A DNA stretch of 64,000 nt from Tupaia tana (taxonomy: Eukaryota > Chordata > Mammalia > Scandentia > Tupaiidae): the NCBI GenBank assembly GCA_026018925.1, contig JAKSZU010000518.1, forward strand, positions 26,343 through 90,342, given 5' to 3'. The position numbers and the translations under genes were made by a program. Under the pieces are notes generated by a model. It had not been told where the DNA came from and made no database searches. It was given only the letters and a program-made list of their open reading frames with translations. This document shows positions 28,326-64,000 of this stretch, piece after piece (positions within the stretch are counted from its first letter, which is position 1; each line of letters opens with the position of its first letter).

Positions 28326-28570
28326 GGTCTGGGGGGAGAAGGAAGGCTAGGTGTTAAAAAGAGAATGCAGGGGGGTCAAGGGAAAAGAAAAGAGAAAAAA
28401 AAAAAAAAAACCGTCTTAAGGCGATCCTGGCTACCTACCTAGAAGGTGGAGTCTCGGGCCTGGGGGTCTGGAAGTGGGGTGGGGGTCAGAGGTGACCCTC
28501 CCTCAGTGTCCCTTGCTGGCCAGAGGCTTGCAGGTGACGCTATTGCCTGCTGGCAGTCCAGGAAGGTCCG
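28325..28570. repeat. ggaaggctagg/ccgtcttaagg variant pair, copy 1 of 3
   Basis: Three linked variants, ggaaggctagg (28,341), ccgtcttaagg (28,411) and gtctcgggcc (28,452), recur at 31,204/31,273/31,314 and 32,399/32,468/32,508. The offsets are 2,863 bp (12 units) and 1,195 bp (5 units). Confidence 0.85.
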
Positions 28571-33690: not shown

Positions 33691-34054
33691 ACCTAGAAGG
33701 TGGAGTCTGGGGCCTGGGGGTCTGGAAGTGGGGTGGGGGTCAGAGGTGACCCTCCCTTAGTGTCCCTTGCTGGCCAGAGGCTTGCAGGTGACGCTATTGC
33801 CTGCTGGCAGTCCAGGAAGGTCTGGGGGGAGAAGGAGGGCTAGGTGTTAAAAAGAGAATGCAGGGGGGTCAAGGGAAAAGAAAAGAGAAAAAAAAAAAAA
33901 AAAACCCGCCTTAAGGCGATCCTGGCTACCTACCTAGAAGGTGGATTCTGGGGCCTGGGGGTCTGGAAGTGGGGTGGGGGTCAGAGGTGACCCTCCCTCA
34001 GTGTCCCTTGCTGGCCAGAGGCTTGCAGGTGACGCTATTGCCTGCTGGCAGTCC

Positions 34055-38100: not shown

Positions 38101-38600
38101 GCAGTCCAGGAAGTTCTGGGGGGAGAAGGAGGGCTAGGTGTTAAAAAGAGAATGCAGGGGGGTCAAGGGAAAAGAAAAGAGAAAAAAAAAAAAAAAACCC
38201 GCCTTAAGGCGATCCTGGCTACCTACCTAAAAGGTGGAGTCTGGGGCCTGGGGGTCTGGAAGTGGGGTGGGGGTCAGAGGTGAACCTCCCTCAGTGTCCC
38301 TTGCTGGCCAGAGGCTTGCAGGTGACGCTATTGCCTGCTGGCAGTCCAGGAAGGTCTGGGGGGAGAAGGAGGGCTAGGTGTTAAAAAGAGAATGCAGGGG
38401 GGTCAAGGGAAAAGAAAAGAGAAAAAAAAAAAAAACCCGCCATAAGGCGATCCTGGCTACCTACTTAGAAGGTGGAGTCTGGGGCCTGGGGGTCTGGAAG
38501 TGGGGTGGGGGTCAGAGGTGACCCTCCCTCAGTGTCCCTTGCTGGCCAGAGGCTTGCAGGTGACGCTATTGCCTACTGGCCGTCCAGGAAGGTCTGGGGG
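35161..38600. repeat. Array segment of weakly structured units
   Basis: About 14 units without a clear higher-order partner. Notable changes: gctaggttttaaaa (35,510), a class-recombinant unit gagacttgcaggtgac (35,928), gaaggacggcaagg (36,224), ccctcgctcagtgtccttgc with small deletions (near 36,382), and a heavily altered unit at 37,247-37,320 (cttgaggcgatcatggctacataccta, gatggtgg, ggatgtggggtg). The first ctatgtgttaaaa unit is at 37,660. No genes. Confidence 0.75.
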
Positions 38601-41600: not shown

Positions 41601-42675
41601 GGCCTGGGGGTCTGGAAGTGGGGTGGGGGTCAGAGGTGACCCTCCCTCAGTGTCCCTTGCTGGCCAGAGGCTTGCAGGTGACGCTATTGCCTGCTGGCAG
41701 TCCAGGAAGGTCTGGGGGGAGAAGGAGGGCTAGGTGTTAAAAAGAGAATGCAGGGGGGTCAAGGGAAAAGAAAAGAGAAAAAAAAAAAAAAAACCCGCCT
41801 TAAGGCGATCCTGGCTACCTACCTAGAAGGTGGAGTCTGGGGCCTGGGGGTCTGGAAGTGGGGTGGGGGTCAGAGGTGACCCTCCCTCAGTGTCCCTTGC
41901 TGGCCAGAGGCTTGCAGGTGACGCTATTGCCTGCTGGCAGTCCAGGAAGGTCTGGGGGGAGAAGGAGGGCTAGGTGTTAAAAAGAGAATGCAGGGGGGTC
42001 AAGGGAAAAGAAAAGAGAAAAAAAAAAAAAAAACCTGCCTTAAGGCGATCCTGGCTACCTACCTAGAAGGTGGAGTCTGGGGCCTGGGGGTCTGGAAGTG
42101 GGTGGGGGTCAGAGGTGACCCTCCCTCAGTGTCCCTTGCTGGCCAGAGACTTGCAGGACACGCTATTGCCTGCTGGCAGTCCAGGAAGGTCTGGGGGGAG
42201 GAGGGCTAGGTGTTAAAAAGAGAATGCAGGGGGGTCAAGGGAAAAGAAAAGAGAAAAAAAAAAAAAAACCCGCCTTAAGGCGATCCTGGCTACCTACCTA
42301 AAAGGTGGAGTCTGGGGCCTGGGGGTCTGGAAGTGGGGTGGGGGTCAGAGGTGAACCTCCCTCAGTGTCCCTTGCTGGCCAGAGGCTTGCAGGTGACGCT
42401 ATTGCCTGCTGGCAGTCCAGGAAGGTCTGGGGGGAGAAGGAGGGCTATGTGTTAAAAAGAGAATGCAGGGGGGTCAAGGGAAAAGAAAAGAGAAAAAAAA
42501 AAAAAAAAAAAACCCGCCTTAAGGCGATCCTGGCTACCTACCTAGAAGGTGGAGTCTGGGGCCTGGGGGTCTGGAAGTGGGGTGGGGGTCAGAGGTGACC
42601 CTCCCTCAGTGTCCCTTGCTGGCCAGAGGCTTGCAGGTGACGCTATTGCCTGCTGGCAGTCCAGGAAGGTCTGGG
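38600..42675. repeat. 17-unit higher-order block (about 4.08 kb), copy 1
   Basis: Ordered markers recur 4,072-4,079 bp downstream: gctaggttttaaaa (38,611), gaaaatagaga (38,651), gtggcgtgg (38,744), ctatgtgtt (38,857), agcctgccttaag (39,643), cagtcccggaagg (40,507), cctaaaagatggag (40,866), gggtggggttcag (40,905), tgctgtccagag (40,942), gctatagcc (40,969), ccctccttaagg (41,079), cctttgctgg (41,178) and ctatgtgtt (41,255). The right-hand part of the block is less well matched. Confidence 0.85.
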
Positions 42676-45600: not shown

Positions 45601-46402
45601 AAAGAAAAGAGAAAAAAAAAAAAACCCGCCTTAAGGCGATCCTGGCTACCTACCTAGAAGGTGGAGTCTGGGGCCTGGGGGACTGGAAGTGGGGTGGGGG
45701 TCAGAGGTGACCCTCCCTCAGTGTCCCTTGCTGGCCAGAGGCTTGCAGGACACGCTATTGCCTGCTGGCAGTCCAGGAAGGTCTGGGGGGAGAAGGAGGG
45801 CTAGGTGTTAAAAAGAGAATGCAGGGGGGTCAAGGGAAAAGAAAGAGAAAAAAAAAAAAAAACCCCTTAAGGCGATCCTGGCTACCTACCTAAAAGGTGG
45901 AGTCTGGGGCCTGGGGGTCTGGAAGTGGGGTGGGGGTCAGAGGTGACCCTCCCTCAGTGTCCCTTGCTGGCCAGAGGCTTGCAGGTGACGCTATTGCCTG
46001 CTGGCAGTCCAGGAAGGTCTGGGGGGAGAAGGAGGGCTAGGTGTTAAAAAGAGAATGCAGGGGGGTCAAGGGAAAAGAAAAGAGAAAAAAAAAAAAAACC
46101 TGCCTTAAGGCGATCCTGGCTACCTACCTAGAAGGTGGAGTCTGGGGCCTGGGGGTCTGGAAGTGGGGTGGGGGTCAGAGGTGACCCTCCCTCAGTGTCC
46201 CTTGCTGGCCAGAATCTTGCAGGACACGCTATTGCCTGCTGGCAGTCCAGGAAGGTCTGGGGGGAGAAGGAGGGCTAGGTGTTAAAAAGAGAATGCAGGG
46301 GGGTCAAGGGAAAAGAAAAGAGAAAAAAAAAAAAAAAACCCGCCTTAAGGCGATCCTGGCTACCTACCTAGAAGGTGGAGTCTGGGGCCTGGGGGTCTGG
46401 AA
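42676..46402. repeat. 17-unit higher-order block, copy 2
   Basis: Copy of 38,600-42,675: gctaggttttaaaa (42,690), gaaaatagag (42,731), gtggcgtgg (42,820), ctatgtgtt (42,931), agcctgccttaag (43,718), cagtcccggaagg (44,581), cctaaaagatggag (44,938), tgctgtccagag (45,014), ccctccttaagg (45,150), ctatgtgtt (45,327). Private features: gaatgaagggg (42,706 and 43,190), extra or missing G at 43,309-43,316, 44,260 and 44,716, and a shortened unit at 45,840-45,880 (gaaagagaaaa, ccccttaagg with cgcc lost). Confidence 0.83.
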
Positions 46403-49400
46403 GTGGGGTGGGGGTCAGAGGTGACCCTCCCTCAGTGTCCCTTGCTGGCCAGAGGCTTGCAGGTGACGCTATTGCCTGCTGGCAGTCCAGGAAGGTCTGG
46501 GGGAGAAGGAGGGCTAGGTGTTAAAAAGAGAATGCAGGGGGGTCAAGGGAAAAGAAAAGAGAAAAAAAAAAAAAACCCGCCTTAAGGCGATCCTGGCTAC
46601 CTACCTAAAAGGTGGAGTCTGGGGCCTGGGGGTCTGGAAGTGGGGTGGGGGTCAGAGGTGACCCTCACTCAGTGTCCCTTGCTGGCCAGAGGCTTGCAGG
46701 TGACGCTATTGCCTGCTGGCAGTCCAGGAAGATCTGGGGGGAGAAGGAGGGCTAGGTGTTTAAAAAGAGAATGCAGGGGGGTCAAGGGAAAAGAAAAGAG
46801 AAAAAAAATAAAACCCGCCTTAAGGCGATCCTGGCTACCTACCTAGATGGTGGAGTCTGGGGCCTGGGGGTCTGGAAGTGGGGTGGGGGTCAGAGGTGAC
46901 CCTCCCTCAGTGTCCCTTGCTGGCCAGAGGCTTGCAGGTGACGCTATTGCCTGCTGCCAGTCCAGGAAGTTCTGGGGGGAGAAGGAGGGCTAGGTGTTAA
47001 AAAGAGAATGCAGGGGGGTCAAGGGAAAAGAAAAGAGAAAAAAAAAAAAAAACCCGCCTTAAGGCGATCCTGGCTACCTACCTAGAAGGTGGAGTCTGGG
47101 GCCTGGGGGTCTGGAAGTGGCGTGGGGGTCAGAGGTGACCCTCCCTCAGTGTCCCTTGCTGGCTAGAGGCTTGCAGGTGACGCTATTGCCTGCTGGCAGT
47201 CCAGGAAGGTCTGGGGGGAGAAGGAGGGCTATGTGTTAAAAAGAGAATGCAGGGGGTCAAGGGAAAAGAAAAGAGAAAAAAAAAAAAAAACCCGCCATAA
47301 GGCGATCCTGGCTACCTACCTAGAAGGTGGAGTCTGGGGCCTGGGGGTCTGGAAGTGGGGTGGGGGTCAGAGGTGACCCTCCCTCAGTGTCCCTTGCTGT
47401 CCAGAGGCTTGCAGGTGACGCTATTGCCTGCTGGCAGTCCAGGAAGGTCTGGGGGGAGAAGGAGGGCTAGGTGTTAAAAAGAGAATGCAGGGGGGTCAAG
47501 GGAAAAGAAAAGAGAAAAAAAAAAAAAACCCGCATTAAGGCGATCCTGGCTACCTACCTAGAAGGTGGAGTCTGGGGCCTGGGGGTCTGGAAGTGGGGTG
47601 GGGGTCAGAGGTGACCCTCCCTCAGTGTCCCTTGCTGGCCAGAGGCTTGCAGGTGACGCTATTGCCTGCTGGCAGTCCAGGAAGGTCTGGGGGGAGAAGG
47701 AGGGCTAGGTGTTAAAAAGAGAATGCAGGGGGGTCAAGGGAAAAGAAAAGAGAAAAAAAAAAAAAAAACCGGCCTTAAGGCGATCCTGGCTACCTACCTA
47801 GAAGGTGGAGTCTGGGGCCTGGGGGTCTGGAAGTGGGGTGGGGGTCAGAGGTGACCCTCCCTCAGTGTCCCTTGCTGGCCAGAGGCTTGCAGGTGACGCT
47901 ATTGCCTGCTGGCAGTCCAGGAAGGTCTGGGGGGAGAAGGAGGGCTAGGTGTTAAAAAGAGTATGCAGGGGGGTCAAGGGAAAAGAAAAGAGAAAAAAAA
48001 AAAAAAAAAACCTGCCTTAAGGCGATCCTGGCTACCTACCTAGAAGGTGGAGTCTGGGGCCTGGGGGTCTGGAAGTGGGGTGGGGGTCAGAGGTGACCCT
48101 CCCTCAGTGTCCCTTGCTGGCCAGAGACTTGCAGGACACGCTATTGCCTGCTGGCAGTCCAGGAAGGTCTGGGGGGGAGAAGGAGGGCTAGGTGTTAAAA
48201 AGAGAATGCAGGGGGGTCAAGGGAAAAGAAAAGAGAAAAAAAAAAAAACCCGCCTTAAGGCGATCCTGGCTACCTACCTAGAAGGTGGAGTCTGGGGCCT
48301 GGGGGTCTGGAAGTGGGGTGGGGGTCAGAGGTGACCCTCCCTCAGTGTCCCTTGCTGGCCAGAGGCTTGCAGGTGACGCTATTGCCTGCTGGCAGTCCAG
48401 GAAGGTCTGGGGGAGAAGGAGGGCTAGGTGTTAAAAAGAGAATGCAGGGAGGTCAAGGGAAAAGAAAAGAGAAAAAAAAAAAAAAAAACCCGCCTTAAGG
48501 CGATCCTGGCTACCTACCTTAAAGGTGGAGTCTGGGGCCTGGGGGTCTGGAAGTGGGGTGGGGGTCAGAGGTGACCCTCCCTCAGTGTCCCTTGCTGGCC
48601 AGAGGCTTGCAGGTGACGCTATTGCCTGCTGGCAGTCCAGGAAGGTCTGGGGGGAGAAGGAGGGCTAGGTGTTAAAAAGAGAATGCAGGGGGGGTCAAGG
48701 GAAAAGAAAAGAGAAAAAAAAAAAAAAAAAAAACCCGCCTTAAGGCGATCCTGGCTACCTACCTAGATGGTGGAGTCTGGGGCCTGGGGGTCTGGAAGTG
48801 GGGTGGGGGTCAGAGGTGACCCTCCCTCAGTGTCCCTTGCTTGCCAGAGGCTTGCAGGTGACGCTATTTCCTGCTGGCAGTCCAGGAAGGTCTGGGGGGA
48901 GAAGGAGGGCTAGGTGTTAAAAAGAGAATGCAGGGGGGTCAAGGGAAAAGAAAAGAGAAAAAAAAAAAAAAAAACCCGCCTTAAGGCGATCCTGGCTACC
49001 TACCTAGAAGGTGGAGTCTGGGGCCTGGGGGTCTGGAAGTGGGGTGGGGGTCAGAGGTGACCCTCCCTCAGTGTCCCATGCTGGCCAGAGGCTTGCAGGT
49101 GACGCTATTGCCTGCTGGCTGTCCAGGAAGATCTGGGGGGAGAAGGAGGGCTAGGTGTTAAAAAGAGAATGCAGGGGGGTCAAGGGAAAAGAAAAGAGAA
49201 AAAAAAAAAAAAAAACCCGCCTTAAGGCGATCCTGGCTACCTACGTAGAAGGTGGAGTCTGGGGCCTGGGGGTCTGGAAGTGGGGTGGGGGTCAGAGGTG
49301 ACCCTCCCTCAGTGTCCCTTGCTGGCCAGAGGCTTGCAGGTGACGCTATTGCCTGCTGGCCGTCCAGGAAGGTCTGGGGGGAGAAGGAGGGCTAGGTGTT

Positions 49401-50233
49401 AAAAAGAGAATGCAGGGGGGTCAAGGGAAAAGAAAAGAGAAAAAAAAAAAAAACCTGCCTTAAGGCGATCCTGGCTACCTAACTAGAAGGTGGAGTCTGG
49501 GGCCTGGGGGTCTGGAAGTGGGGTGGGGGTCAGAGGTGACCCTCCCTCAGTGTCCCTTGCTGGCCAGAGACTTGCAGGACACGCTATAGCCTGCTGGCAG
49601 TCCAGGAAGGTCTGGGGGGAGAAGGAGGGCTAGGTGTTAAAAAGAGAATGCAGGGGGGTCAAGGGAAAAGAAAAGAGAAAAAAAAAAATAAAAACCCGCC
49701 TTAAGGCGATCCTGGCTACCTACCTAGAAGGTGGAGTCTGGGGCCTGGGGGTCTGGAAGTGGGGTGGGGGTCAGAGGTGACCCTCCCTCAGTGTCCCTTG
49801 CTGGCCAGAGGCTTGCAGGTGACGCTATTGCCTGCTGGCAGTCCAGGAAGGTCTGGGGGGAGAAGGAGGCCTAGGTGTTAAAAAGAGAATGCATGGGTTC
49901 AAGGGAAAAGAAAAGAGAAAAAAAAAAAAAACCCGCCTTAAGGCGATCCTGGCTACCTACCTAGAAGGTGGAGTCTGGGGCCTGGGGGTCTGGAAGTGGG
50001 GTGGGGGTCAGAGGTGACCCTCCCTCAGTGTCCCTTGCTGGCCAGAGGCTTGCAGGTGACGCTATTGCCTGGTGGCAGTCCAGGAAGGTCTGGGCGGAGA
50101 AGGAGGGCTAGGTGTTAAAAAGAGAATGCAGGGGGGTCAAGGGAAAAGAAAAGAGAAAAAAAAAAAAAACCCGCCTTAAGGCGATCTTGGCTACCTACCT
50201 AGAAGGTGGAGTCTGGGGCCTGGGGGTCTGGAA
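46403..50233. repeat. 16-unit higher-order block (3,831 bp), copy 1
   Basis: Ordered markers recur 3,831 bp downstream: ctgccagtcc (46,955), gtggcgtgg (47,117), ggctagaggc (47,161), ctatgtgtt (47,229), a shortened G-run gcagggggtcaagg (47,249), ccgccataagg (47,293), tgctgtccagagg (47,396), cccgcattaagg (47,530), accggcctt (47,768), agagtatgcagg (47,959), gcagggaggtcaagg (48,445), cctagatggtgg (48,764), ttgcttgccagagg (48,838), ctatttcctgc (48,864), cccatgctgg (49,076), ctacgtagaagg (49,242), ggccgtccagg (49,359), taactagaagg (49,481), ggaggcctagg (49,866) and gcatgggttcaagg (49,892). The block ends with a unit carrying cctggtggcag (50,068). Confidence 0.9.
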
Positions 50234-53200
50234 GTGGGGTGGGGGTCAGAGGTGACCCTCCCTCAGTGTCCCTTGCTGGCCAGAGGTTTGCAGGTGACGC
50301 TATTGCCTGCTGGCAGTCCAGGAAGGTCTGGGGGAGAAGGAGGGCTAGGTGTTAAAAAGAGAATGCAGGGGGGTCAAGGGAAAAGAAAAGAGAAAAAAAA
50401 AAAAACCCGCCTTAAGGCGATCCTGGCTACCTACCTAAAAGGTGGAGTCTGGGGCCTGGGGGTCTGGAAGTGGGGTGGGGGTCAGAGGTGACCCTCCCTC
50501 AGTGTCCCTTGCTGGCCAGAGGCTTGCAGGTGACGCTATTGCCTGCTGGCAGTCCAGGAAGGTCTGGGGGGAGAAGGAGGGCTAGGTGTTAAAAAGAGAA
50601 TGCAGGGGGGTCAAGGGAAAAGAAAAGAGAAAAAAAAATAAAACCCGCCTTAAGGCGATCCTGGCTACCTACCTAGAAGGTGGAGTCTGGGGCCTGGGGG
50701 GTCTGGAAGTGGGGTGGGGGTCAGAGGTGACCCTCCCTCAGTGTCCCTTGCTGGCCAGAGGCTTGCAGGTGACGCTATTGCCTGCTGCCAGTCCAGGAAG
50801 TTCTGGGGGGAGAAGGAGGGCTAGGTGTTAAAAAGAGAATGCAGGGGGGTCAAGGGAAAAGAAAAGAGAAAAAAAAAAAAAACCCGCCTTAAGGCGATCC
50901 TGGCTACCTACCTAGAAGGTGGAGTCTGGGGCCTGGGGGTCTGGAAGTGGCGTGGGGGTCAGAGGTGACCCTCCCTCAGTGTCCCTTGCTGGCTAGAGGC
51001 TTGCAGGTGACGCTATTGCCTGCTGGCAGTCCAGGAAGGTCTGGGGGGAGAAGGAGGGCTATGTGTTAAAAAGAGAATGCAGGGGGTCAAGGGAAAAGAA
51101 AAGAGAAAAAAAAAAAAAAACCCGCCATAAGGCGATCCTGGCTACCTACCTAGAAGGTGGAGTCTGGGGCCTGGGGGTCTGGAAGTGGGGTGGGGGTCAG
51201 AGGTGACCCTCCCTCAGTGTCCCTTGCTGTCCAGAGGCTTGCAGGTGACGCTATTGCCTGCTGGCAGTCCAGGAAGGTCTGGGGGGAGAAGGAGGGCTAG
51301 GTGTTAAAAAGAGAATGCAGGGGGGTCAAGGGAAAAGAAAAGAGAAAAAAAAAAAAAAAACCCGCATTAAGGCGATCCTGGCTACCTACCTAGAAGGTGG
51401 AGTCTGGGGCCTGGGGGTCTGGAAGTGGGGTGGGGGTCAGAGGTGACCCTCCCTCAGTGTCCCTTGCTGGCCAGAGGCTTGCAGGTGACGCTATTGCCTG
51501 CTGGCAGTCCAGGAAGGTCTGGGGGAGAAGGAGGGCTAGGTGTTAAAAAGAGAATGCAGGGGGGTCAAGGGAAAAGAAAAGAGAAAAAAAAAAAAAAAAA
51601 ACCGGCCTTAAGGCGATCCTGGCTACCTACCTAGAAGGTGGAGTCTGGGGCCTGGGGGTCTGGAAGTGGGGTGGGGGTCAGAGGTGACCCTCCCTCAGTG
51701 TCCCTTGCTGGCCAGAGGCTTGCAGGTGACGCTATTGCCTGCTGGCAGTCCAGGAAGGTCTGGGGGGAGAAGGAGGGCTAGGTGTTAAAAAGAGTATGCA
51801 GGGGGGTCAAGGGAAAAGAAAAGAGAAAAAAAAAAAAAAAAAAACCTGCCTTAAGGCGATCCTGGCTACCTACCTAGAAGGTGGAGTCTGGGGCCTGGGG
51901 GTCTGGAAGTGGGGTGGGGGTCAGAGGTGACCCTCCCTCAGTGTCCCTTGCTGGCCAGAGACTTGCAGGACACGCTATTGCCTGCTGGCAGTCCAGGAAG
52001 GTCTGGGGGAGAAGGAGGGCTAGGTGTTAAAAAGAGAATGCAGGGGGGTCAAGGGAAAAGAAAAGAGAAAAAAAAAAAACCCGCCTTAAGGCGATCCTGG
52101 CTACCTACCTAGAAGGTGGAGTCTGGGGCCTGGGGGTCTGGAAGTGGGGTGGGGGTCAGAGGTGACCCTCCCTCAGTGTCCCTTGCTGGCCAGAGGCTTG
52201 CAGGTGACGCTATTGCCTGCTGGCAGTCCAGGAAGGTCTGGGGGAGAAGGAGGGCTAGGTGTTAAAAAGAGAATGCAGGGAGGTCAAGGGAAAAGAAAAG
52301 AGAAAAAAAAAAAAAAAAAACCCGCCTTAAGGCGATCCTGGCTACCTACCTTAAAGGTGGAGTCTGGGGCCTGGGGGTCTGGAAGTGGGGTGGGGGTCAG
52401 AGGTGACCCTCCCTCAGTGTCCCTTGCTGGCCAGAGGCTTGCAGGTGACGCTATTGCCTGCTGGCAGTCCAGGAAGGTCTGGGGGGAGAAGGAGGGCTAG
52501 GTGTTAAAAAGAGAATGCAGGGGGGTCAAGGGAAAAGAAAAGAGAAAAAAAAAAAAAAAAAACCCGCCTTAAGGCGATCCTGGCTACCTACCTAGATGGT
52601 GGAGTCTGGGGCCTGGGGGTCTGGAAGTGGGGTGGGGGTCAGAGGTGACCCTCCCTCAGTGTCCCTTGCTTGCCAGAGGCTTGCAGGTGACGCTATTTCC
52701 TGCTGGCAGTCCAGGAAGGTCTGGGGGGAGAAGGAGGGCTAGGTGTTAAAAAGAGAATGCAGGGGGGTCAAGGGAAAAGAAAAGAGAAAAAAAAAAAAAA
52801 CCCGCCTTAAGGCGATCCTGGCTACCTACCTAGAAGGTGGAGTCTGGGGCCTGGGGGTCTGGAAGTGGGGTGGGGGTCAGAGGTGACCCTCCCTCAGTGT
52901 CCCATGCTGGCCAGAGGCTTGCAGGTGACGCTATTGCCTGCTGGCTGTCCAGGAAGATCTGGGGGGAGAAGGAGGGCTAGGTGTTAAAAAGAGAATGCAG
53001 GGGGGTCAAGGGAAAAGAAAAGAGAAAAAAAAAAAAAAAACCCGCCTTAAGGCGATCCTGGCTACCTACGTAGAAGGTGGAGTCTGGGGCCTGGGGGTCT
53101 GGAAGTGGGGTGGGGGTCAGAGGTGACCCTCCCTCAGTGTCCCTTGCTGGCCAGAGGCTTGCAGGTGACGCTATTGCCTGCTGGCCGTCCAGGAAGGTCT

Positions 53201-53818
53201 GGGGGGAGAAGGAGGGCTAGGTGTTAAAAAGAGAATGCAGGGGGGTCAAGGGAAAAGAAAAGAGAAAAAAAAAAAAACCTGCCTTAAGGCGATCCTGGCT
53301 ACCTAACTAGAAGGTGGAGTCTGGGGCCTGGGGGTCTGGAAGTGGCGTGGGGGTCAGAGGTGACCCTCCCTCAGTGTCCCTTGCTGGCCAGAGACTTGCA
53401 GGACACGCTATAGCCTGCTGGCAGTCCAGGAAGGTCTGGGGGGAGAAGGAGGGCTAGGTGTTAAAAAGAGAATGCAGGGGGGTCAAGGGAAAAGAAAAGA
53501 GAAAAAAAAAATAAAAACCCGCCTTAAGGCGATCCTGGCTACCTACCTAGAAGGTGGAGTCTGGGGCCTGGGGGTCTGGAAGTGGGGTGGGGGTCAGAGG
53601 TGACCCTCCCTCAGTGTCCCTTGCTGGCCAGAGGCTTGCAGGTGACGCTATTGCCTGCTGGCAGTCCAGGAAGGTCTGGGGGGAGAAGGAGGCCTAGGTG
53701 TTAAAAAGAGAATGCATGGGTTCAAGGGAAAAGAAAAGAGAAAAAAAAAAAAAACCCGCCTTAAGGCGATCCTGGCTACCTACCTAGAAGGTGGAGTCTG
53801 GGGCCTGGGGGTCTGGAA
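50234..53818. repeat. 15-unit higher-order block (3,585 bp), copy 2
   Basis: Repeats the marker series of 46,403-50,233 in the same order from ctgccagtcc (50,786) to gcatgggttcaagg (53,715), but lacks the last unit of copy 1 (cctggtggcag, gatcttgg). It is one monomer shorter. Private: gtggcgtgg in the unit at 53,343, and one extra G at about 50,700. Confidence 0.9.
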
Positions 53819-56626
53819 GTGGGGTGGGGGTCAGAGGTGACCCTCCCTCAGTGTCCCTTGCTGGCCAGAGGTTTGCAGGTGACGCTATTGCCTGCTGGCA
53901 GTCCAGGAAGGTCTGGGGGAGAAGGAGGGCTAGGTGTTAAAAAGAGAATGCAGGGGGGTCAAGGGAAAAGAAAAGAGAAAAAAAAAAAAACCCGCCTTAA
54001 GGCGATCCTGGCTACCTACCTAAAAGGTGGAGTCTGGGGCCTGGGGGTCTGGAAGTGGGGTGGGGGTCAGAGGTGACCCTCCCTCAGTGTCCCTTGCTGG
54101 CCAGAGGCTTGCAGGTGACGCTATTGCCTGCTGGCAGTCCAGGAAGGTCTGGGGGGAGAAGGAGGGCTAGGTGTTAAAAAGAGAATGCAGGGGGGTCAAG
54201 GGAAAAGAAAAGAGAAAAAAAAAATAAAACCCGCCTTAAGGCGATCCTGGCTACCTACCTAGAAGGTGGAGTCTGGGGCCTGGGGGTCTGGAAGTGGGGT
54301 GGGGGTCAGAGGTGACCCTCCCTCAGTGTCCCTTGCTGGCCAGAGGCTTGCAGGTGACGCTATTGCCTGCTGCCAGTCCAGGAAGTTCTGGGGGGAGAAG
54401 GAGGGCTAGGTGTTAAAAAGAGAATGCAGGGGGGTCAAGGGAAAAGAAAAGAGAAAAAAAAAAAAAAACCCGCCTTAAGGCGATCCTGGCTACCTACCTA
54501 GAAGGTGGAGTCTGGGGCCTGGGGGTCTGGAAGTGGCGTGGGGGTCAGAGGTGACCCTCCCTCAGTGTCCCTTGCTGGCTAGAGGCTTGCAGGTGACGCT
54601 ATTGCCTGCTGGCAGTCCAGGAAGGTCTGGGGGGAGAAGGAGGGCTATGTGTTAAAAAGAGAATGCAGGGGGTCAAGGGAAAAGAAAAGAGAAAAAAAAA
54701 AAAAACCCGCCTTAAGGCGATCCTGGCTACCTACCTAGAAGGTGGAGTCTGGGGCCTGGGGGTCTGGAAGTGGGGTGGGGTTCAGAGGTGACCCTCCCTC
54801 AGTGTCCCTTGCTGTCCAGAGGCTTGCAGGTGACGCTATTGCCTGCTGGCAGTCCAGGAAGGTCTGGGGGGAGAAGGAGGGCTAGGTGTTAAAAAGAGAA
54901 TGCAGGGGGGTCAAGGGAAAAGAAAAGAGAAAAAAAAAAAAAAACCCGCATTAAGGCGATCCTGGCTACCTACCTAGAAGGTGGAGTCTGGGGCCTGGGG
55001 GTCTGGAAGTGGGGTGGGGGTCAGAGGTGACCCTCCCTCAGTGTCCCTTGCTGGCCAGAGGCTTGCAGGTGACGCTATTGCCTGCTGGCAGTCCAGGAAG
55101 GTCTGGGGGGAGAAGGAGGGCTAGGTGTTAAAAAGAGAATGCAGGGGGGTCAAGGGAAAAGAAAAGAGAATAAAAAAAAAAAAAACGGCCTTAAGGCGAT
55201 CCTGGCTACCTACCTAGAAGGTGGAGTCTGGGGCCTGGGGGTCTGGAAGTGGGGTGGGGGTCAGAGGTGACCCTCCCTCAGTGTCCCTTGCTGGCCAGAG
55301 GCTTGCAGGTGACGCTATTGCCTGCTGGCAGTCCAGGAAGGTCTGGGGGGAGAAGGAGGGCTAGGTGTTAAAAAGAGTATGCAGGGGGGTCAAGGGAAAA
55401 GAAAAGAGAAAAAAAAAAAAAAAAAACCTGCCTTAAGGCGATCCTGGCTACCTACCTAGAAGGTGGAGTCTGGGGCCTGGGGGTCTGGAAGTGGGGTGGG
55501 GGTCAGAGGTGACCCTCCCTCAGTGTCCCTTGCTGGCCAGAGACTTGCAGGACACGCTATTGCCTGCTGGCAGTCCAGGAAGGTCTGGGGGGAGAAGGAG
55601 GGCTAGGTGTTAAAAAGAGAATGCAGGGGGGTCAAGGGAAAAGAAAAGAGAAAAAAAAAAAAACCCGCCTTAAGGCGATCCTGGCTACCTACCTAGAAGG
55701 TGGAGTCTGGGGCCTGGGGGTCTGGAAGTGGGGTGGGGGTCAGAGGTGACCCTCCCTCAGTGTCCCTTGCTGGCCAGAGGCTTGCAGGTGACGCTATTGC
55801 CTGCTGGCAGTCCAGGAAGGTCTGGGGGAGAAGGAGGGCTAGGTGTTAAAAAGAGAATGCAGGGAGGTCAAGGGAAAAGAAAAGAGAAAAAAAAAAAAAA
55901 CCCGCCTTAAGGCGATCCTGGCTACCTACCTAAAAGGTGGAGTCTGGGGCCTGGGGGTCTGGAAGTGGGGTGGGGGTCAGAGGTGACCCTCCCTCAGTGT
56001 CCCTTGCTGGCCAGAGGCTTGCAGGTGACGCTATTGCCTGCTGGCAGTCCAGGAAGGTCTGGGGGGAGAAGGAGGGCTAGGTGTTAAAAAGAGAATGCAG
56101 GGGGGTCAAGGGAAAAGAAAAGAGAAAAAAAAAAAAAAACCCGCCTTAAGGCGATCCTGGCTACCTACGTAGATGGTGGAGTCTGGGGCCTGGGGGTCTG
56201 GAAGTGGGGTGGGGGTCAGAGGTGACCCTCCCTCAGTGTCCCTTGCTTGCCAGAGGCTTGCAGGTGACGCTATTGCCTGCTGGCAGTCCAGGAAGGTCTG
56301 GGGGGAGAAGGAGGGCTAGGTGTTAAAAAGAGAATGCAGGGGGGTCAAGGGAAAAGAAAAGAGAAAAAAAAAAAAAAACCCGCCTTAAGGCGATCCTGGC
56401 TACCTACCTAGAAGGTGGAGTCTGGGGCCTGGGGGTCTGGAAGTGGGGTGGGGGTCAGAGGTGACCCTCCCTCAGTGTCCCTTGCTGGCCAGAGGCTTGC
56501 AGGTGACGCTATTGCCTGCTGGCAGTCCAGGAAGGTCTGGGGGGAGAAGGAGGGCTAGGTGTTAAAAAGAGAATGCAGGGGGGGTCAAGGGAAAAGAAAA
56601 GAGAAAAAAAAAAAAAAAAAAAAAAA
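53819..56626. repeat. Higher-order block copy 3, cut short
   Basis: Third copy of the same series at an offset of 3,585 bp: ctgccagtcc (54,370), gtggcgtgg (54,533), ggctagaggc (54,587), tgctgtccagagg (54,822), cccgcattaagg (54,947), aacggcctt (55,185), agagtatgcagg (55,375), gcagggaggtcaagg (55,861), agatggtgg (56,171) and ttgcttgccagagg (56,247). Some markers are reverted to consensus (ccgccttaagg for ccgccataagg, ctattgcctg for ctatttcctg). After about twelve units it ends in a 23-A run at 56,604-56,626 and the scrambled segment. Confidence 0.88.
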
Positions 56627-56964
56627 GTCTGGGGCCTGGGGGTCTGGAAAAGGTGACCCTCCCTCAGTGCCTTAAGGCGATCCTGGCTACCTACCTAGAA
56701 GGTGCGAGTCTGGAGGGGCCTGGGGGTCTGGAAGTGGGGTGGGGGTCAGAGGTGACCCTCCCTCAGTGTCCCTTGCTGGCCAGAGGCTTGCAGGTGACGC
56801 TATTGCCTGCTGGCAGTCCAGGAAGGTGTTAAAAAGGTCTGGGGGGAGAAGGCCTTAAGGCGGGCTAGGTGTTGGAAAAAAGTGTCCCTTGCTGGAGAAT
56901 GCATTGCCTGGGGGTCCAGGAAGGTCAAGGGAAAAGAAAAGAGAAAAGAAAAAAAAAAAAAAAA
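56627..56964. other. Scrambled satellite segment
   Basis: This 338-bp stretch is made of unit fragments in the wrong order. After 23 A it enters at gtctggggcctggggg, skipping the first 40 or so bases of the unit. It jumps from ctggaa to aggtgaccctccctcagtg, back to ccttaaggcgatcc, and runs nearly normally with two small insertions (ggtgCgagtc, ctggAGGggcc) to ccaggaagg. It then goes to tgttaaaaag (56,827), back to gtctggggggagaagg, to a second ccttaaggcg (56,853), to ggctaggtgtt, ggaaaaa, agtgtcccttgctgg (56,881), agaatgca, ttgcctg, ggggtccaggaaggtc, and finally the normal purine tail. Every piece is satellite sequence. Real template switching or an assembly/consensus error are both possible. 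Confidence 0.9.
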
Positions 56965-57205
56965 CCCGCCTTAAGGCGATCCTGGCTACCTACCTAGAAG
57001 GTGGAGTCTGGGGCCTGGGGGTCTGGAAGTGGGGTGGGGGTCAGAGGTGACCCTCCCTCAGTGTCCCTTGCTGGCCAGAGGCTTGCAGGTGACGCTATTG
57101 CCTGCTGGCAGTCCAGGAAGGTCTGGGGGGAGAAGGAGGGCTAGGTGTTAAAAAGAGAATGCAGGGGGGTCAAGGGAAAAGAAAAGAGAAAAAAAAAAAA
57201 AAACC

Positions 57206-57217
57206 CGCCTTAAGGCG
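57206..57217. repeat. 12-bp perfect palindrome at unit start
   Basis: CGCCTTAAGGCG reads the same on both strands, with a CpG at each end and CTTAAG in the centre. It directly follows the A-tract and is present intact in most monomers. In units beginning cctgcc it shrinks to the inner 10 bp. Other point variants (cgcgttaagg, ccgcattaagg, ccgccataagg, cggcttaagg) break symmetry in scattered copies. A dyad next to a rigid A-tract could bind a dimeric protein, but no specific factor is recognised. Confidence 0.85.
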
Positions 57218-57248
57218 ATCCTGGCTACCTACCTAGAAGGTGGAGTCT

Positions 57249-57279
57249 GGGGCCTGGGGGTCTGGAAGTGGGGTGGGGG
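57249..57279 (+). other. G-run cluster, possible G-quadruplex
   Basis: Four runs of four to five G lie within 31 bp, separated by loops of 3, 9 and 1 nt. The 9-nt loop exceeds the usual 7-nt limit for canonical quadruplex motifs but itself contains GG. Two six-G runs later in the unit (57,364-57,369 and 57,403-57,408) could supply further strands. On the complementary strand the ggggtgggggt part reads as a CACCC-type box, as recognised by the Sp/KLF family. Present in nearly all monomers. Confidence 0.5.
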
Positions 57280-57292
57280 TCAGAGGTGACCC
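57277..57292. promoter_or_regulatory. GGGTCA-n4-TGACCC inverted repeat, nuclear-receptor-like
   Basis: GGGTCAGAGGTGACCC has two 6-bp arms in exact inverted order around a 4-bp spacer. Read as a direct repeat, the same bases give GGGTCA-G-AGGTGA, one mismatch from a DR1 element (RGGTCA-N-RGGTCA), the class bound by HNF4 and by RXR heterodimers. The element is conserved in nearly all monomers; scattered breaks include ggtgaacctc, ggtgcacctc, gaagtgacc and gaggtgtccc. The motif is seen directly. Binding by a nuclear receptor is inference from motif similarity only and may be chance. Confidence 0.35.
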
Positions 57293-57365
57293 TCCCTCAG
57301 TGTCCCTTGCTGGCCAGAGGCTTGCAGGTGACGCTATTGCCTGCTGGCAGTCCAGGAAGGTCTGG

Positions 57366-57378
57366 GGGGAGAAGGAGG
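57366..57378 (-). other. Match to the 13-mer PRDM9 hotspot motif
   Basis: GGGGAGAAGGAGG is, on the minus strand, CCTCCTTCTCCCC, which fits the degenerate human recombination-hotspot motif CCNCCNTNNCCNC at every fixed position. The block is intact in most monomers and broken in a minority, for example gtgagaagg near 5,591 and 6,311, gggtagaagg near 9,191 and 14,116, and ggaaggctagg at 28,341, 31,204 and 32,399. The motif is permissive for purine-rich DNA and the species is unknown, so meaning is uncertain. Confidence 0.4.
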
Positions 57379-57410
57379 GCTAGGTGTTAAAAAGAGAATG
57401 CAGGGGGGTC

Positions 57411-57444
57411 AAGGGAAAAGAAAAGAGAAAAAAAAAAAAAAAAA
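57411..57444 (+). repeat. All-purine tract ending in poly(A)
   Basis: A 34-nt run without pyrimidines: a mirror-symmetric GAAAAGAAAAG core, then GAG, then 17 A. Every full-length monomer has it. The terminal A-run ranges from about 10 to 23 and is the main source of unit-length variation. It is sometimes interrupted by one G (for example near 1,135, 2,564, 12,144, 15,741, 17,420, 28,163), a T (1,619, 22,919, 27,213, 49,689) or a C (7,334, 9,739, 37,230). It may be a relic of a retroposed 3' end or simple slippage; the sequence does not decide. Confidence 0.8.
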
Positions 57445-60260
57445 CCCGCCTTAAGGCGATCCTGGCTACCTACCTAGAAGGTGGAGTCTGGGGCCTGGGG
57501 GTCTGGAAGTGGGGTGGGGGTCAGAGGTGACCCTCCCTCAGTGTCCCTTGCTGGCCAGAGGCTTGCAGGTGACGCTATTGCCTGCTGGCAGTCCAGGAAG
57601 GTCTGGGGGGAGAAGGAGGGCTAGGTGTTAAAAAGAGAATGCAGGGGGTTCAAGGGAAAAGAAAAGAGAAAAAAAAAAAAAACCCGCCTTAAGGCGATCC
57701 TGGCTACCTACCTAGAAGGTGGACTCTGGGGCCTGGGGGTCTGGAAGTGGGGTGGGGGTCAGAGGTGACCCTCCCTCAGTGTCCCTTGCTGGCCAGAGAC
57801 TTGCAGGACACGCTATAGCCTGCTGGCAGTCCAGGAAGGTCTGGGGGGAGAAGGAGGGCTAGGTGTTAAAAAGAGAATGCAGGGGGGTCAAGGGAAAAGA
57901 AAAGAGAAAAAAAAAAATAAAAACCCGCCTTAAGGCGATCCTGGCTACCTACCTAGAAGGTGGAGTCTGGGGCCTGGGGGTCTGGAAGTGGGGTGGGGGT
58001 CAGAGGTGACCCTCCCTCAGTGTCCCTTGCTGGCCAGAGGCTTGCAGGTGACGCTATTGCCTGCTGGCAGTCCAGGAAGGTCTGGGGGGAGAAGGAGGGC
58101 TAGGTGTTAAAAAGAGAATGCAGGGGGGTCAAGGGAAAAGAAAAGAGAAAAAAAAAAAAAAAAACCTGCCTTAAGGCGATCCTGGCTACCTACCTAGAAG
58201 GTGGAGTCTGGGGCCTGGGGGTCTGGAAGTGGGGTGGGGGTCAGAGGTGACCCTCCCTCAGTGTCCCTTGCTGGCAGAGGCTTGCAGGTGACGCTATTGC
58301 CTGCTGGCAGTCCAGGAAGGTCTGGGGGGAGAAGGAGGGCTAGGTGTTAAAAAGAGAATGCAGGGGGGTCAAGGGAAAAGAAAAGAGAAAAAAAAAAAAA
58401 AAAAACCCGCCTTAAGGCGATCCTGGCTACCTACCTAGAAGGTGGAGTCTGGGCCCTGGGGGTCTGGAAGTGGGGTGGGGGTCAGAGGTGACCCTCCCTC
58501 AGTGTCCCTTGCTGGCCAGAGGCTTGCAGGTGACGCTATTGCCTGCTGGCAGTCCAGGAAGGTCTGGGGGGAGAAGGAGGCCTAGGTGTTAAAAAGAGAA
58601 TGCAGGGGTTCAAGGGAAAAGAAAAGAGAAAAAAAAAAAAACCCGCCTTAAGGCGATCCTGGCTACCTACCTAGAAGGTGGAGTCTGGGGCCTGGGGGTC
58701 TGGAAGTGGGGTGGGGGTCAGAGGTGACCCTCCCTCAGTGTCCCTTGCTTGCCAGAGGCTTGCAGGTGACGCTATTGCCTGGTGGCAGTCCAGGAAGGTC
58801 TGGGGGGAGAAGGAGGGCTAGGTGTTAAAAAGAGAATGCAGGGGGGTCAAGGGAAAAGAAAAGAGAAAAAAAAAAAAAACCCGCCTTAAGGCGATCTTGG
58901 CTACCTACCTAGAAGGTGGAGTCTGGGGCCTGGGGGTCTGGAAGTGGGGTGGGGGTCAGAGGTGACCCTCCCTCAGTGTCCCTTGCTGGCCAGAGGCTTG
59001 CAGGTGACGCTATTGCCTGCTGGCAGTCCAGGAAGTTCTGGGGGGAGAAGGAGGGCTAGGTGTTAAAAAGAGAATGCAGGGGGGTCAAGGGAAAAGAAAA
59101 GAGAAAAAAAAAAAAAACCCGCCTTAAGGCGATCCTGGCTACCTACCTAGAAGGTGGAGTCTGGGGCCTGGGGGTCTGGAAGTGGGGTGGGGGTCAGAGG
59201 TGACCCTCCCTCAGTGTCCTTTGCTGGCCAGAGGCTTGCAGGTGACGCTATTGCCTGCTGCCAGTCCAGGAAGGTCTGGGGGGAGAAGGAGGGCTAGGTG
59301 TTAAAAAGAGAATGCAGGGGGGTCAAGGGAAAAGAAAAGAGGAAAAAAAAAAAAAACCCGCCTTAAGGCGATCCTGGCTACCTACCTAGAAGGTGGAGTC
59401 TGGGGCCTGGGGGTCTGGAAGTGGGGTGGGGGTCAGAGGTGACCCTCCCTCAGTGTCCCTTGCTGGCCAGAGGCTTGCAGGTGACGCTATTGCCTGCTGG
59501 CCGTCCAGGAAGGTCTGGGGGGAGAAGGAGGGCTAGGTGTTAAAAAGAGAATGCAGGGGGGTCAAGGGAAAAGAAAAGAGAAAAAAAAAAAAAAAACCTG
59601 CCTTAAGGCGATCCTGGCTACCTAACTAGAAGGTGGAGTCTGGGGCCTGGGGGTCTGGAAGTGGGGTGGGGGTCAGAGGTGACCCTCCCTCAGTGTCCCT
59701 TGCTGGCCAGAGACTTGCAGGACACGCTATAGCCTGCTGGCAGTCCAGGAAGGTCTGGGGGGAGAAGGAGGGCTAGGTGTTAAAAAGAGAATGCAGGGGG
59801 GTCAAGGGAAAAGAAAAGAGAAAAAAAAAAATAAAAACCCGCCTTAAGGCGATCCTGGCTACCTACCTAGAAGGTGGAATCTGGGGCCTGGGGGTCTGGA
59901 AGTGGGGTGGGGGTCAGAGGTGACCCTCCCTCAGTGTCCCTTGCTGGCCAGAGGCTTGCAGGTGACGCTATTGCCTGCTGGCAGTCCAGGAAGGTCTGGG
60001 GGGAGAAGGAGGGCTAGGTGTTAAAAAGAGAATGCAGGGGTTCAAGGGAAAAGAAAAGAGAAAAAAAAAAAAACCCGCCTTAAGGCGATCCTGGCTACCT
60101 ACCTAGAAGGTGGAGTCTGGGGCCTGGGGGTCTGGAAGTGGGGTGGGGGTCAGAGGTGACCCTCCCTCAGTGTCCCTTGCTGGCCAGAGGCTTGCAGGTG
60201 ACGCTATTGCCTGCTGGCAGTCCAGGAAGGTCTGGGGGGAGAAGGAGGGCTAGGTGTTAA

Positions 60261-63200
60261 AAAGAGAATGCAGGGGGGTCAAGGGAAAAGAAATGAGAAA
60301 AAAAAAAAAACCCGCCTTAAGGCGATCCTGGCTACCTACCTAGAAGGTGGAGTCTGGGGCCTGGGGGTCTGGAAGTGGGGTAGGGGTCAGAAGTGACCCT
60401 CCCTCAGTGTCCCTTGCTGGCCAGAGGCTTGCAGGTGACGCTATTGCCTGCTGGCAGTCCAGGAAGGTCTGGGGGGAGAAGGAGGGCTAGGTGTTAAAAA
60501 GAGAATGCAGGGGGGTCAAGGGAAAAGAAAAGAGAAAAAAAAAAAAAAACCCGCCTTAAGGCGATCCTGGCTACCTACCTAGAAGGTGGAGTCTGGGGCC
60601 TGGGGGTCTGGAAGTGGGGTGGGGGTCAGAGGTGACCCTCCCTCAGTGTCCCTTGCTGGCCAGAGGCTTGCAGGTGACGCTATTGCCTGCTGGCAGTCCA
60701 GGAAGGTCTGGGGGGAGAAGGAGGGCTAGGTGTTAAAAAGAGAATGCAGGGGGTTCAAGGGAAAAGAAAAGAGAAAAAAAAAAAAAAACCCGCCTTAAGG
60801 CGATCCTGGCTACCTACCTAAAAGGTGGAGTCTGGGGCCTGGGGGTCTGGAAGTGGGGTGGGGGTCAGAGGTGACCCTCCCTCAGTGTCCCTTGCTGGCC
60901 AGAGGCTTGCAGGTGACGCTATAGCCTGCTGGCAGTCCAGGAAGGTCTGGGGGGAGAAGGAGGGCTAGGTGTTAAAAAGAGAATGCAGGGGGGTCAAGGG
61001 AAAAGAAAAGAGAAAAAAAAAAAAAAAACCCGCCTTAAGGCGATCCTGGCTACCTACCTAGAAGGTGGAGTCTGGGGCCTGCGGGTCTGGAAGTGGGGTG
61101 GGGGTCAGAGGTGACCCTCCCTCAGTGTCCCTTGCTGGCCAGAGGCTTGCAGGTGACGCTATTGCCTGCTGGCAGTCCCTGGAAGGTCTGGGGGGAGAAG
61201 GAGGGCTAGGTGTTAAAAAGAGAATGCAGGGGGGTCAAGGGAAAAGAAAAGAGAAAAAAAAAAAAAAAACCTGCCTTAAGGCGATCCTGGCTACCTACCT
61301 AGAAGGTGGAGTCTGGGGCCTGGGGGTCTGGAAGTGGGGTGGGGGTCAGAGGTGACCCTCCCTCAGTGTCCCTTGCTGGCCAGAGGCTTGCAGGTGACGC
61401 TATTGCCTGCTGGCAGTCCAGGAAGGTCTGGGGGGAGTAGGAGGGCTAGGTGTTAAAAAGAGAATGCAGGGGGGTCAAGGGAAAAGAAAAGAGAAAAAAA
61501 AAAAAACCCCGCCTTAAGGCGATCCTGGCTACCTACCTAGAAGGTGGAGTCTGGGCCCCTGGGGGTCTGGAAGTGGGGTGGGGGTCAGAGGTGACCCTCC
61601 CTCAGTGTCCCTTGCTGGCCAGAGGCTTGCAGGACACGCTATTTGCCTGCTGGCAGTCCAGGAAGGTCTGGGGGGAGAAGGAGGCCTAGGTGTTAAAAAG
61701 AGAATGCAGGGGGGTCAAGGGAAAAGAAAAGAGAAAAAAAAAAAAAACCCGCCTTAAGGCGATCCTGGCTACCTACCTAGAAGGTGGAGTCTGGGGCCTG
61801 GGGTCTGGAAGTGGGGTGGGGGTCAGAGGTGACCCTCCCTCAGTGTCCCTTGCTGGCCAGAGGCTTGCAGGTGACGCTATTGCCTGCTGGCAGTCCAGGA
61901 AGGTCTGGGGGGAGAAGGAGGGCCTAGGTGTTAAAAAGAGAATGCAGGGGGGTCAAGGGAAAAGAAAAGAGAAAAAAAAAAAAACCCGCCTTAAGGCGAT
62001 CTTGGCTACCTACCTAGAAGGTGGAGTCTGGGGCCTGGGGGTCTGGAAGTGGGGTGGGGGTCAGAGGTAACCCTCCCTCAGTGTCCCTTGCTGGCCAGAG
62101 GCTTGCAGGTGACGCTATTGCCTGCTGGCAGTCCAGGAAGGTCTGGGGGGAGAAGGAGGGCTAGGTGTTAAAAAGAGAATGCAGGGGGGTCAAGGGAAAA
62201 GAAAAGAGAAAAAAAAAAAAAAAAACCCGCCTTAAGGCGATCCTGGCTACCTACCTAGAAGGTGGAGTCTGGGGCCTGGGGGTCTGGAAGAGGGGTAGGG
62301 GTCAGAGGTGACCCTCCCTCAGTGTCCCTTGCTGGCCAGAGGCTTGCAGGTGACACTATTGCCTGCTGGCAGTCCAGGAAGGTCTGGGGGGAGAAGGAGG
62401 GCTAGGTGTTAAAAAGAGAATGCAGGGGGGTCAAGGGAAAAGAAAAGAGAAAAAAAAAAAAAAAAAACCCGCCTTAAGGCGATCCTGGCTACCTACCTAG
62501 AAGGTGGAGTCTGGGGCCTGGGGGTCTGGAAGTGGGGTGGGGGTCAGAGGTGACCCTCCCTCAGTGTCCCTTGCTGGCCAGAGGCTTGCAGGTGACGCTA
62601 TTGCCTGCTGGCCGTCCAGGAAGGTCTGGGGGGAGAAGGAGGGCTAGGTGTTAAAAAGAGAATGCAGGGGGGTCAAGGGAAAAGAAAAGAGAAAAAAAAA
62701 AAAAAAACCCGCATTAAGGCGATCCTGGCTACCTACCTAGAAGGTGGAGTCTGGGGCCTGGGGGTCTGGAAGTGGGGTGGGGGTCAGAGGTGACCCTCCC
62801 TCAGTGTCCCTTGCTGGCCAGAGGACTTGCAGGTGACGCTATTGCCTGCTGGCAGTCCAGGAAGTTCTGGGGGGAGAAGGAGGGCTAGGTGTTAAAAAGA
62901 GAATGCAGGGGGGTCAAGGGAAAAGAAAAGAGAAAAAAAAAAAAACCCGCCTTAAGGCTATCCTGGCTACCTACCTAGAAGGTGGAGTCTGGGGCCTGGG
63001 GGTCTGGAAGTGGGGTGGGGGTCAGAGGTGACCCTCCCTCAGTCTCCCTTGCTGGCCAGAGGCTTGCAGGTGACGCTATTGCCTGCTGGCAGTCCAGGAA
63101 GGTCTGGGGGGAGAAGGAGGGCTAGGTGTTAAAAAGAGAATGCAGGGGGTTCAAGGGAAAAGAAAAGAGAAAAAAAAAAAAAAACCTGCCTTAAGGCGAT

Positions 63201-64000
63201 CCTGGCTATCTACCTAGAAGGTGGAGTCTGGGGCCTGGGGGTCTGGAAGTGGGGTGGGGGTCAGAGGTGACCCTCCCTCAGTGTCCCTTGCTGGCCAGAG
63301 GCTTGCAGGTGACGCTATTGCCTGCTGGCAGTCCAGGAAGTTCTGGGGGGAGAAGGAGGGCTAGGTGTTAAAAAGAGAATGCAGGGGGGTCAAGGGAAAA
63401 GAAATGAGAGAAAAAAAAAAAAAAAACCCTCATTAAGGCGATCCTGGCTACCTACCTAGAAGGTGGAGTCTGGGGCCTGGGGGTCTGGAAGTGGCGTGGG
63501 GGTCAGAGGTGACCCTCCCTCAGTGTCCCTTGCTTGCCAGAGGCTTGCAGGTGACGCTATTGCCTGCTGGCAGTCCAGGAAGGTCTGGGGGAGAAGGGAG
63601 GGCTATGTGTTAAAAGAGAATGCAGGGGGGTCAAGGAAAAGAAAAGAGAAAAAAAAAAAAAAACCCGCCTTAAGGCGATCCTGGCTACTACCTAGAAGGT
63701 GGAGTCTGGGGCCTGGGTGTCTGGAAGTGGGGTGGGTTCAGAGGTGACCCTCCCTCAGTGTCCCTTGCTGGCCAGAGGCTTGCAGGTGACGCTATTGCCT
63801 GCTGGCAGTCCAGGAAGGTCTGGGGGGAGAAGGAGGGCTAGGTGTTAAAAAGAGAATGCAGGGGGGTCAAGGGAAAAGAAAAGAGAAAAAAAAAAAAAAA
63901 ACCCGCCTTAAGGCGATCCTGGCTACCTACCTAGAAGGTGGAGTCTGGGGCCTGGGGGTCTGGAAGTGGGGTGGGGGTCAGAGGTGACCCTCCCTCAGTG
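60261..64000. repeat. Right-hand array segment with more indels
   Basis: About 15-16 units with more small insertions and deletions than elsewhere: cagtccctggaagg (61,174), gggggagtagg (61,433), gggcccctggggg (61,554), ctatttgcctg (61,640), ggcctggggtctgg with lost G (61,796), gagggcctagg (61,917), gaggacttgcaggtg (62,821), gagaagggaggg (63,591), gtgttaaaagag (63,608), gtcaaggaaaag (63,631), ggctactacctag (63,682) and ggtgggttcagagg (63,731). The gtggcgtgg/ctatgtg unit recurs at 63,492-63,605. The array continues past the window edge. Confidence 0.8.

What the first reader, a model, noticed from the sequence alone, without database searches (positions are those of the whole stretch)
56627..56964. 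Scrambled unit with about a dozen out-of-order junctions
This is the only place in 64 kb where unit order fails. Fragments of about 7-110 bases, all recognisable from the satellite, are joined forwards and backwards within 338 bp, often at short shared words such as gg, agg, aagg or ggcg. It coincides with the longest A-run I noticed (23 A) and with the abrupt end of the third higher-order block. Such a pattern is what repeated template switching during replication repair (MMBIR/FoSTeS-like) would leave. It is also what a failed consensus between collapsed repeat copies could produce, and I cannot tell these apart.
Basis: partly seen in the sequence, partly recalled or inferred. Interest (0 to 1): 0.85.

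Follow-up and report, generated by a model that had tools for sequence, protein, structure and literature searches.

The report
Satellite repeat peppered with copied words
One copy among hundreds of a tandem repeat is complete and in order but carries about ten short extra stretches, most of them copied from the same repeat, which looks like a single burst of stuttering DNA synthesis, although a sequencing or assembly error cannot be ruled out without the reads.

Summary
The anomaly at 56,619-56,964 is in the assembly, but it is not a shuffled unit. One complete 239-nt unit can be read through it in order (239 of 239 bases, no mismatch, no net deletion; about 5 bases may really be lost). Some 100 extra bases, plus 8 extra A in the longest A-run of the window, sit at ten sites. 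They tile with exact words of the same unit, all in direct orientation.
No other of 757 aligned units looks like it. Three of its junctions occur nowhere else in the 2.95-Gb genome, which holds at least 7,314 unit anchors. Three or more shared bases lie at 7 of 18 junctions, 9.7% expected, P 0.001; other cut-offs gave P 0.09.
Two reader claims fail: unit order also breaks at seven 129-bp partial units, and the third higher-order block ends about 340-370 bp earlier.
Best reading: one episode of direct-strand template switching with return to register. Main rival: a read or consensus error; the segment lies 7.0 kb from the end of an unplaced contig.
Side result: the satellite is the 5'-UTR monomer of an L1 family (505 monomer-L1 joints).

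The parts
1..64000 (-). 239-bp satellite array; the unit is the 5'-UTR (promoter-region) monomer of an L1 family, L1 sense being the - strand of the window
   Evidence: TRF; arrays abut L1 5'-UTR/ORF1 in L028, L037 and L027 and ORF2-side sequence in L025; 505 monomer-to-L1-body joints genome-wide with up to 3 mismatches
46342..56280 (+). 16-unit higher-order block in about 2.7 tandem copies (starts near 46342, 50173, 53758); the third copy loses its markers between about 56250 and 56280
   Evidence: variant-signature diagonals
56379..56603 (+). ordinary unit body between the block end and the anomaly; equals the consensus except for one extra G in the G-run at 56578-56584 (7 G are seen in 25 of 698 units counted)
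56604..56626 (+). A-run of 23, longest in the window
   Evidence: 2 of 717 A-runs counted in six array pieces are 23 or longer
56627..56668 (+). insert block: copies of unit bases 42-64 and 81-98 with one extra a between them and 16 unit bases skipped (three bases, ccc, are counted as backbone by the alignment)
   Evidence: exact tiles, alignment
56669..56964 (+). backbone: unit bases 4-239 in order, interrupted by the inserts below
56705..56705 (+). 1-nt insert (c)
56712..56714 (+). 3-nt insert (gga); too short to call templated
56823..56833 (+). 11-nt insert from the word at unit bases 179-191, 4 and 3 shared nt at its two junctions
56853..56861 (+). insert ccttaaggc, copy of unit bases 5-13 (one a counted as backbone by the alignment)
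56874..56876 (+). insert of 3 nt (gga); too short to call templated
56882..56894 (+). 13-nt insert, copy of unit bases 97-109
56904..56910 (+). 7-nt insert, copy of unit bases 134-140
56915..56922 (+). 8-nt insert, copy of unit bases 148-155
56944..56949 (+). 6-nt insert in the A/G tract (local slippage would do)

Best explanation
One satellite monomer underwent a single episode of discontinuous templated synthesis. A nascent strand copying the unit (for example in break-induced or gap-filling synthesis, begun or stalled at the long A-run) came off several times, annealed by 0-5 bases to another part of the same template strand in this or a neighbouring unit, copied roughly 7-24 bases, and went back to the place it had left. 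The long in-register homology of a nearly identical array would guide it back, so the extra words were kept and almost nothing was lost. Shown: the complete backbone, exact satellite words, direct orientation, microhomology excess at the 3-nt cut-off, uniqueness in the assembly. Inferred: that a real DNA molecule carries it, that it was one event, the polymerase and the trigger. The inserts of 1-3 nt are not explained by copying.
For: Intact backbone with insertions only. The stretch tiles with exact satellite words (23 tiles, four of them only 4-6 nt), which noisy raw-read error would hardly give (inference). Microhomology of 3 nt or more at 7 of 18 junctions, P 0.001. No gain from allowing inverted pieces. 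Single occurrence: 1 of 757 aligned units; three junction patterns each found once genome-wide with up to 3, 3 and 2 mismatches; the exact-anchor gapped pattern for 3 or more extra bases between unit bases 141 and 179 found 3 other places, all with longer G-runs instead of a copied word (the anomaly itself lacks the right anchor and is not among them). Flanking units are ordinary. Two more diverged units in contig C555 share small inserts, and one of them adds a 9-nt satellite word, so small templated inserts may arise naturally in this repeat.
Against: No reads, second haplotype or second individual could be examined; the left-flank marker is unique in the assembly, so no allelic copy was found. 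The segment is 7.0 kb from the end of an unplaced 90-kb contig. Insertion-only change without any inverted piece is unusual for MMBIR or polymerase-theta repair (recalled). The simpler junction parse gives P 0.09, and microhomology of 2 nt or more gives P 0.087.
Confidence: 0.48

Rival explanations
1. Technical artefact: an error in a read, or in consensus or polishing, in the possibly thinly supported tail of an unplaced satellite contig, inserting satellite words into an otherwise normal unit.
For: 7.0 kb from the contig end; begins at the window's longest A-run; insertion-only change fits a consensus that keeps spurious detours (recalled, not tested); PacBio HiFi is reported to lose coverage at A/G-rich low-complexity sequence (passages of PMC7545148), and parts of this unit are A/G-rich; seen once although the assembly holds at least 7,314 unit anchors.
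Against: The words match the unit without error; they come from other phases of the unit, whereas mis-registered satellite reads differ by whole units (inference); base-level noise nearby is low, with 4 single-unit deletions among the 80 units listed. The read type and assembler of this genome, and the read depth here, are not known to me.
Confidence: 0.42
2. Chain of end-joining rounds at one double-strand break (polymerase-theta type), the whole stretch of about 56,828-56,922 being a single insert tract made of short templated pieces.
For: Piece lengths of about 7-20 nt with short shared words; microhomology-mediated joining that can also give insertions is inferred in the human germline (passages of PMC7615360).
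Against: Several pieces continue the backbone exactly where it stopped, which a blind chain would hardly do (0 of 2,000 random-phase chains of the whole segment reached the score); no inverted piece needed; the first insert block lies outside this tract.
Confidence: 0.05
3. Successive forward deletions over several units that left fragments behind.
For: All pieces are direct and some are joined at short words.
Against: Leftovers of many deletions would not be expected to add up to one complete unit in order (0 of 2,000 shuffles reached the score).
Confidence: 0.02
4. Template jumps by L1 reverse transcriptase on an RNA of tandem monomers, later caught inside the array.
For: The unit is an L1 5'-UTR monomer, and an RNA template allows only direct jumps (inference).
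Against: The segment lies inside a contig that is satellite throughout, without an L1 body; exact returns are unexplained.
Confidence: 0.03

Closest known systems
MMBIR / FoSTeS replication template switching
   Same: Several short templated pieces joined at microhomology in one place
   Different: No inverted piece, no net loss, and in-register return to the backbone each time
Tandem Short Template (TST) jumps (PMC7347108, passages seen)
   Same: Chains of short templated insertions attributed to replication template switching
   Different: There the inserts have a median of about 150-200 bp and come from hotspots often far apart, and obvious microhomology is infrequent; here the copied words are about 7-24 nt from the same 239-bp unit, inside a retained backbone
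Short templated insertions at breaks (PMC11724301, abstract in search listing only)
   Same: Insert length (most about 5-34 bp there)
   Different: The inserts described there are inverted duplications formed by foldback at double-strand breaks; here all are direct and spread over a whole unit
Mouse L1 5'-UTR monomers with tether (PMC9022269, passages seen)
   Same: Tandem promoter monomers directly upstream of a non-monomeric stretch and ORF1
   Different: The youngest mouse L1s carry on average 3-4 monomers, with seven loci above 10; here a contig of 90 kb holds 367 unit intervals. Promoter activity was not tested here

Membership tests
MMBIR / FoSTeS event | several templated segments joined out of order | tested here: met
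   13-17 junctions by parse; exact tiles
MMBIR / FoSTeS event | microhomology at junctions above chance | tested here: inconclusive
   P 0.001 for 3 nt or more, P 0.087 for 2 nt or more; P 0.09 with the simple parse
MMBIR / FoSTeS event | mixture of direct and inverted segments (common, not obligatory; recalled) | tested here: not met
   both-strand tiling no shorter than direct-only tiling
MMBIR / FoSTeS event | present in the DNA of the organism | not testable with these tools
   no reads; no allelic contig found with the left-flank marker
Polymerase-theta end-joining scar | insert tract at one junction with small flanking deletion (recalled) | tested here: not met
   inserts at ten sites across a retained unit, no net deletion
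TST jumps | inserts of about 150-200 bp from breakpoint hotspots | tested here: not met
   inserts of 1 to about 42 nt that match the local unit (compare)
L1 5'-UTR monomer (what the satellite unit is) | unit lies directly upstream of L1 non-monomeric 5'-UTR and ORF1 in many copies | tested here: met
   505 joints with up to 3 mismatches; monomer sequence upstream in 6 of 6 and ORF1 start downstream in 5 of 6 loci looked at
L1 5'-UTR monomer (what the satellite unit is) | promoter activity | not testable with these tools
   none

The most novel reading that the evidence does not exclude
A real germline event in which a stalled replication or repair fork in a nearly identical tandem array made about ten short excursions on the same template strand and returned to its register each time, leaving an insertion-only scar. 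This would be a signature that arises when an array's own homology keeps re-anchoring the nascent strand.
Probability: 0.35. Interest if true: 0.65.

Novelty: new variant of a known kind. Interest (0 to 1): 0.42.

Why it matters
If it is real, it would be a near-complete record of template switching inside satellite DNA, where such events are normally invisible because jumps between identical units leave no trace. The in-register return would suggest that tandem homology protects against loss while permitting insertions. If it is an artefact, it is an example of an assembly error that mimics template switching, useful as a warning in surveys of complex repair scars. In either case the host repeat is notable: L1 5'-UTR monomers expanded into long satellite arrays.

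Tried and rejected
Shuffled order: rejected, because one unit is complete and in order. Inverted pieces: none needed. Coincidence with the higher-order block end: near, not exact. Chimeric join of two arrays: right-flank variants occur both in C662 and elsewhere, so this is undecided; the right-flank marker I chose proved common (251 places) and so was useless for finding an allele. The extra G before the A-run is ordinary (25 of 698 G-runs have 7 G). The gapped pattern for unit bases 192-209 was badly chosen, since its lower limit admits one extra base: 574 places, of which the 100 listed carry only 1-2 extra bases; the other 474 were not seen. Rfam gave one sub-threshold match in 55,000-58,500; phage records gave none for one stretch of 481 bases. 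Species: not identified; a scan with short SINE and L1-tail words from memory gave no clear answer. One search used a wrong unit cut that produced false insertions and was replaced. The jump-parse output was cut in display. One search also gave a microhomology test with A-runs included (mean 2.6 against 0.88, 0 of 1,000); I used the version without them. Units longer than 420 or shorter than 100 bp were not counted, and units under 160 bp (41 of 798) were not aligned there.

Literature: searches were aimed at the insertion pattern or at artefacts; none of the titles and abstract starts listed describes an insertion-only scar in a satellite. Searches (no paper) and 71 were aimed at L1-derived satellites. 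I saw passages of five papers and read none in full. These searches cover only the held library and those terms.

Full report
WHERE. The window is G000:C662:26343-90342, the right-hand 64 kb of a contig of 90,342 bp in an unnamed 2.95-Gb genome of 1,198 contigs, some of which exceed 200 Mb; I take C662 to be unplaced. It consists of a satellite with a period of about 239 bp. The anomaly lies 7.0 kb from the contig end.

WHAT THE SEGMENT IS. A jump alignment to the unit consensus finds 13-17 junctions, depending on the jump penalty, between 56,618 and 56,942, all on the + strand. A plain gapped alignment then shows something simpler. One whole unit, 239 of 239 bases without mismatch or deletion, can be read in order through 56,627-56,964, with about 100 extra bases in between. 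There are ten insertion sites (two pairs of alignment gaps merged and one edge base left out): 8 extra A plus a block at 56,627-56,668 made of unit bases 42-64 and 81-98; 1 nt at 56,705; 3 nt at 56,712; 11 nt at 56,823; 9 nt at 56,853; 3 nt at 56,874; 13 nt at 56,882; 7 nt at 56,904; 8 nt at 56,915; 6 nt at 56,944. Bases 1-3 and 173 of the unit match inside inserts, so a true loss of about 5 bases is possible. Shuffling the fragments or giving them random phases never reached the observed alignment score (0 of 2,000 each); such chains still recovered up to 235 and 236 of 239 bases in order, with means of 186 and 172. The whole stretch tiles with exact unit words, 23 tiles with the A-runs, four of them only 4-6 nt long. 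The inserts of 1-3 nt are too short to be called templated.

JUNCTIONS. With a parse-matched null and the A-runs left out, 7 of 18 junctions share 3 or more bases (expected 9.7%, P 0.001), mean 1.9 against 0.88 (P 0.0008); for 2 or more bases P is 0.087. A simpler parse of 14 junctions gave mean 1.36 against 0.83, P 0.09. Allowing reverse-strand pieces does not shorten the tiling.

HOW RARE. Of 798 units cut from nine array pieces, 41 short ones were not aligned; of the 757 aligned, only the anomaly shows many inserts of this size. Two more diverged units in C555 share inserts of 4 and 2 nt, and one of them adds a 9-nt satellite word. Genome-wide there are at least 7,314 unit anchors; three junction patterns occur once each; an exact-anchor gapped pattern for 3 or more extra bases between unit bases 141 and 179 found 3 places, all with longer G-runs. 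A second gapped pattern was uninformative.

CONTEXT. A 16-unit block is repeated about 2.7 times from 46.3 kb; its third copy loses its markers inside the unit at 56,144, and a unit equal to the consensus but for one extra G follows before the anomaly. So the anomaly is close to, but not at, the block end. Unit order is also broken at seven 129-bp partial units in the first 15 kb; partial units of the same kind occur in other arrays and at L1 5' ends. The left-flank marker is unique in the assembly, so no allelic contig was found.

WHAT THE SATELLITE IS. At the four array-to-L1 joints that I read, in C864, C555 and twice in C309, the monomers stop at the same unit phase. Three run into the non-monomeric 5'-UTR and ORF1 of an L1; the fourth, the end of a 23-kb array on C309, runs into sequence just before ORF2 through a deletion. 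The monomer-to-L1 joint occurs 505 times with up to 3 mismatches. The unit is therefore an L1 5'-UTR monomer, and the window is its antisense strand. The youngest mouse L1s average 3-4 monomers (passages of PMC9022269). In the passages I saw of a review of transposon-derived satellites, the L1-derived ones come from ORF2 or the 3' UTR (PMC9659126); I saw none from the L1 5' UTR, but did not read the whole review.

MECHANISM. I favour one burst of direct-strand, short-range template switching with return to register (0.48), with a technical artefact close behind (0.42). For a real event: exact words, microhomology at the 3-nt cut-off, intact backbone, ordinary neighbours. For an artefact: contig tail, A-run, insertion-only change, singleton, weaker P values at other cut-offs. 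Collapse of repeat copies is a poor fit, since copies differ by whole units (inference). No tool here holds reads, so the matter stays open.

Noticed in passing
whole window; L025:3870, L027:3060, L028:9410, L037:5760: The 239-bp satellite is the 5'-UTR monomer of an L1 family: arrays abut the L1 body at a fixed phase in the four joints read, and 505 such joints are found genome-wide. Monomer arrays reach 90 kb (C662), and a 23-kb array lies next to L1 ORF2 on C309.
   Followed up: partly
453, 8216, 8818, 10617, 11219, 12789, 14819: Seven 129-bp partial units (bases 30-158 repeated), a recurrent short form also seen next to L1 bodies.
   Followed up: partly
46342-56280: 16-unit higher-order block in about 2.7 copies; other local segment duplications of about 4-19 units occur across the contig.
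   Followed up: partly
L025:3860-3880: The C309 array is joined to L1 sequence just before ORF2 through a deletion of the tether and most of ORF1, with a few shared bases at the joint (by eye).
   Followed up: no
unit bases 46-76, for example 56715-56745: G-rich tract with four runs of 4-5 G in the consensus unit, a possible G-quadruplex.
   Followed up: no
L037:2640-2760 and 4060-4200: Two C555 units share small inserts (4 and 2 nt); one adds a 9-nt templated insert, the other extra G-rich words: a possible milder form of the same process.
   Followed up: partly
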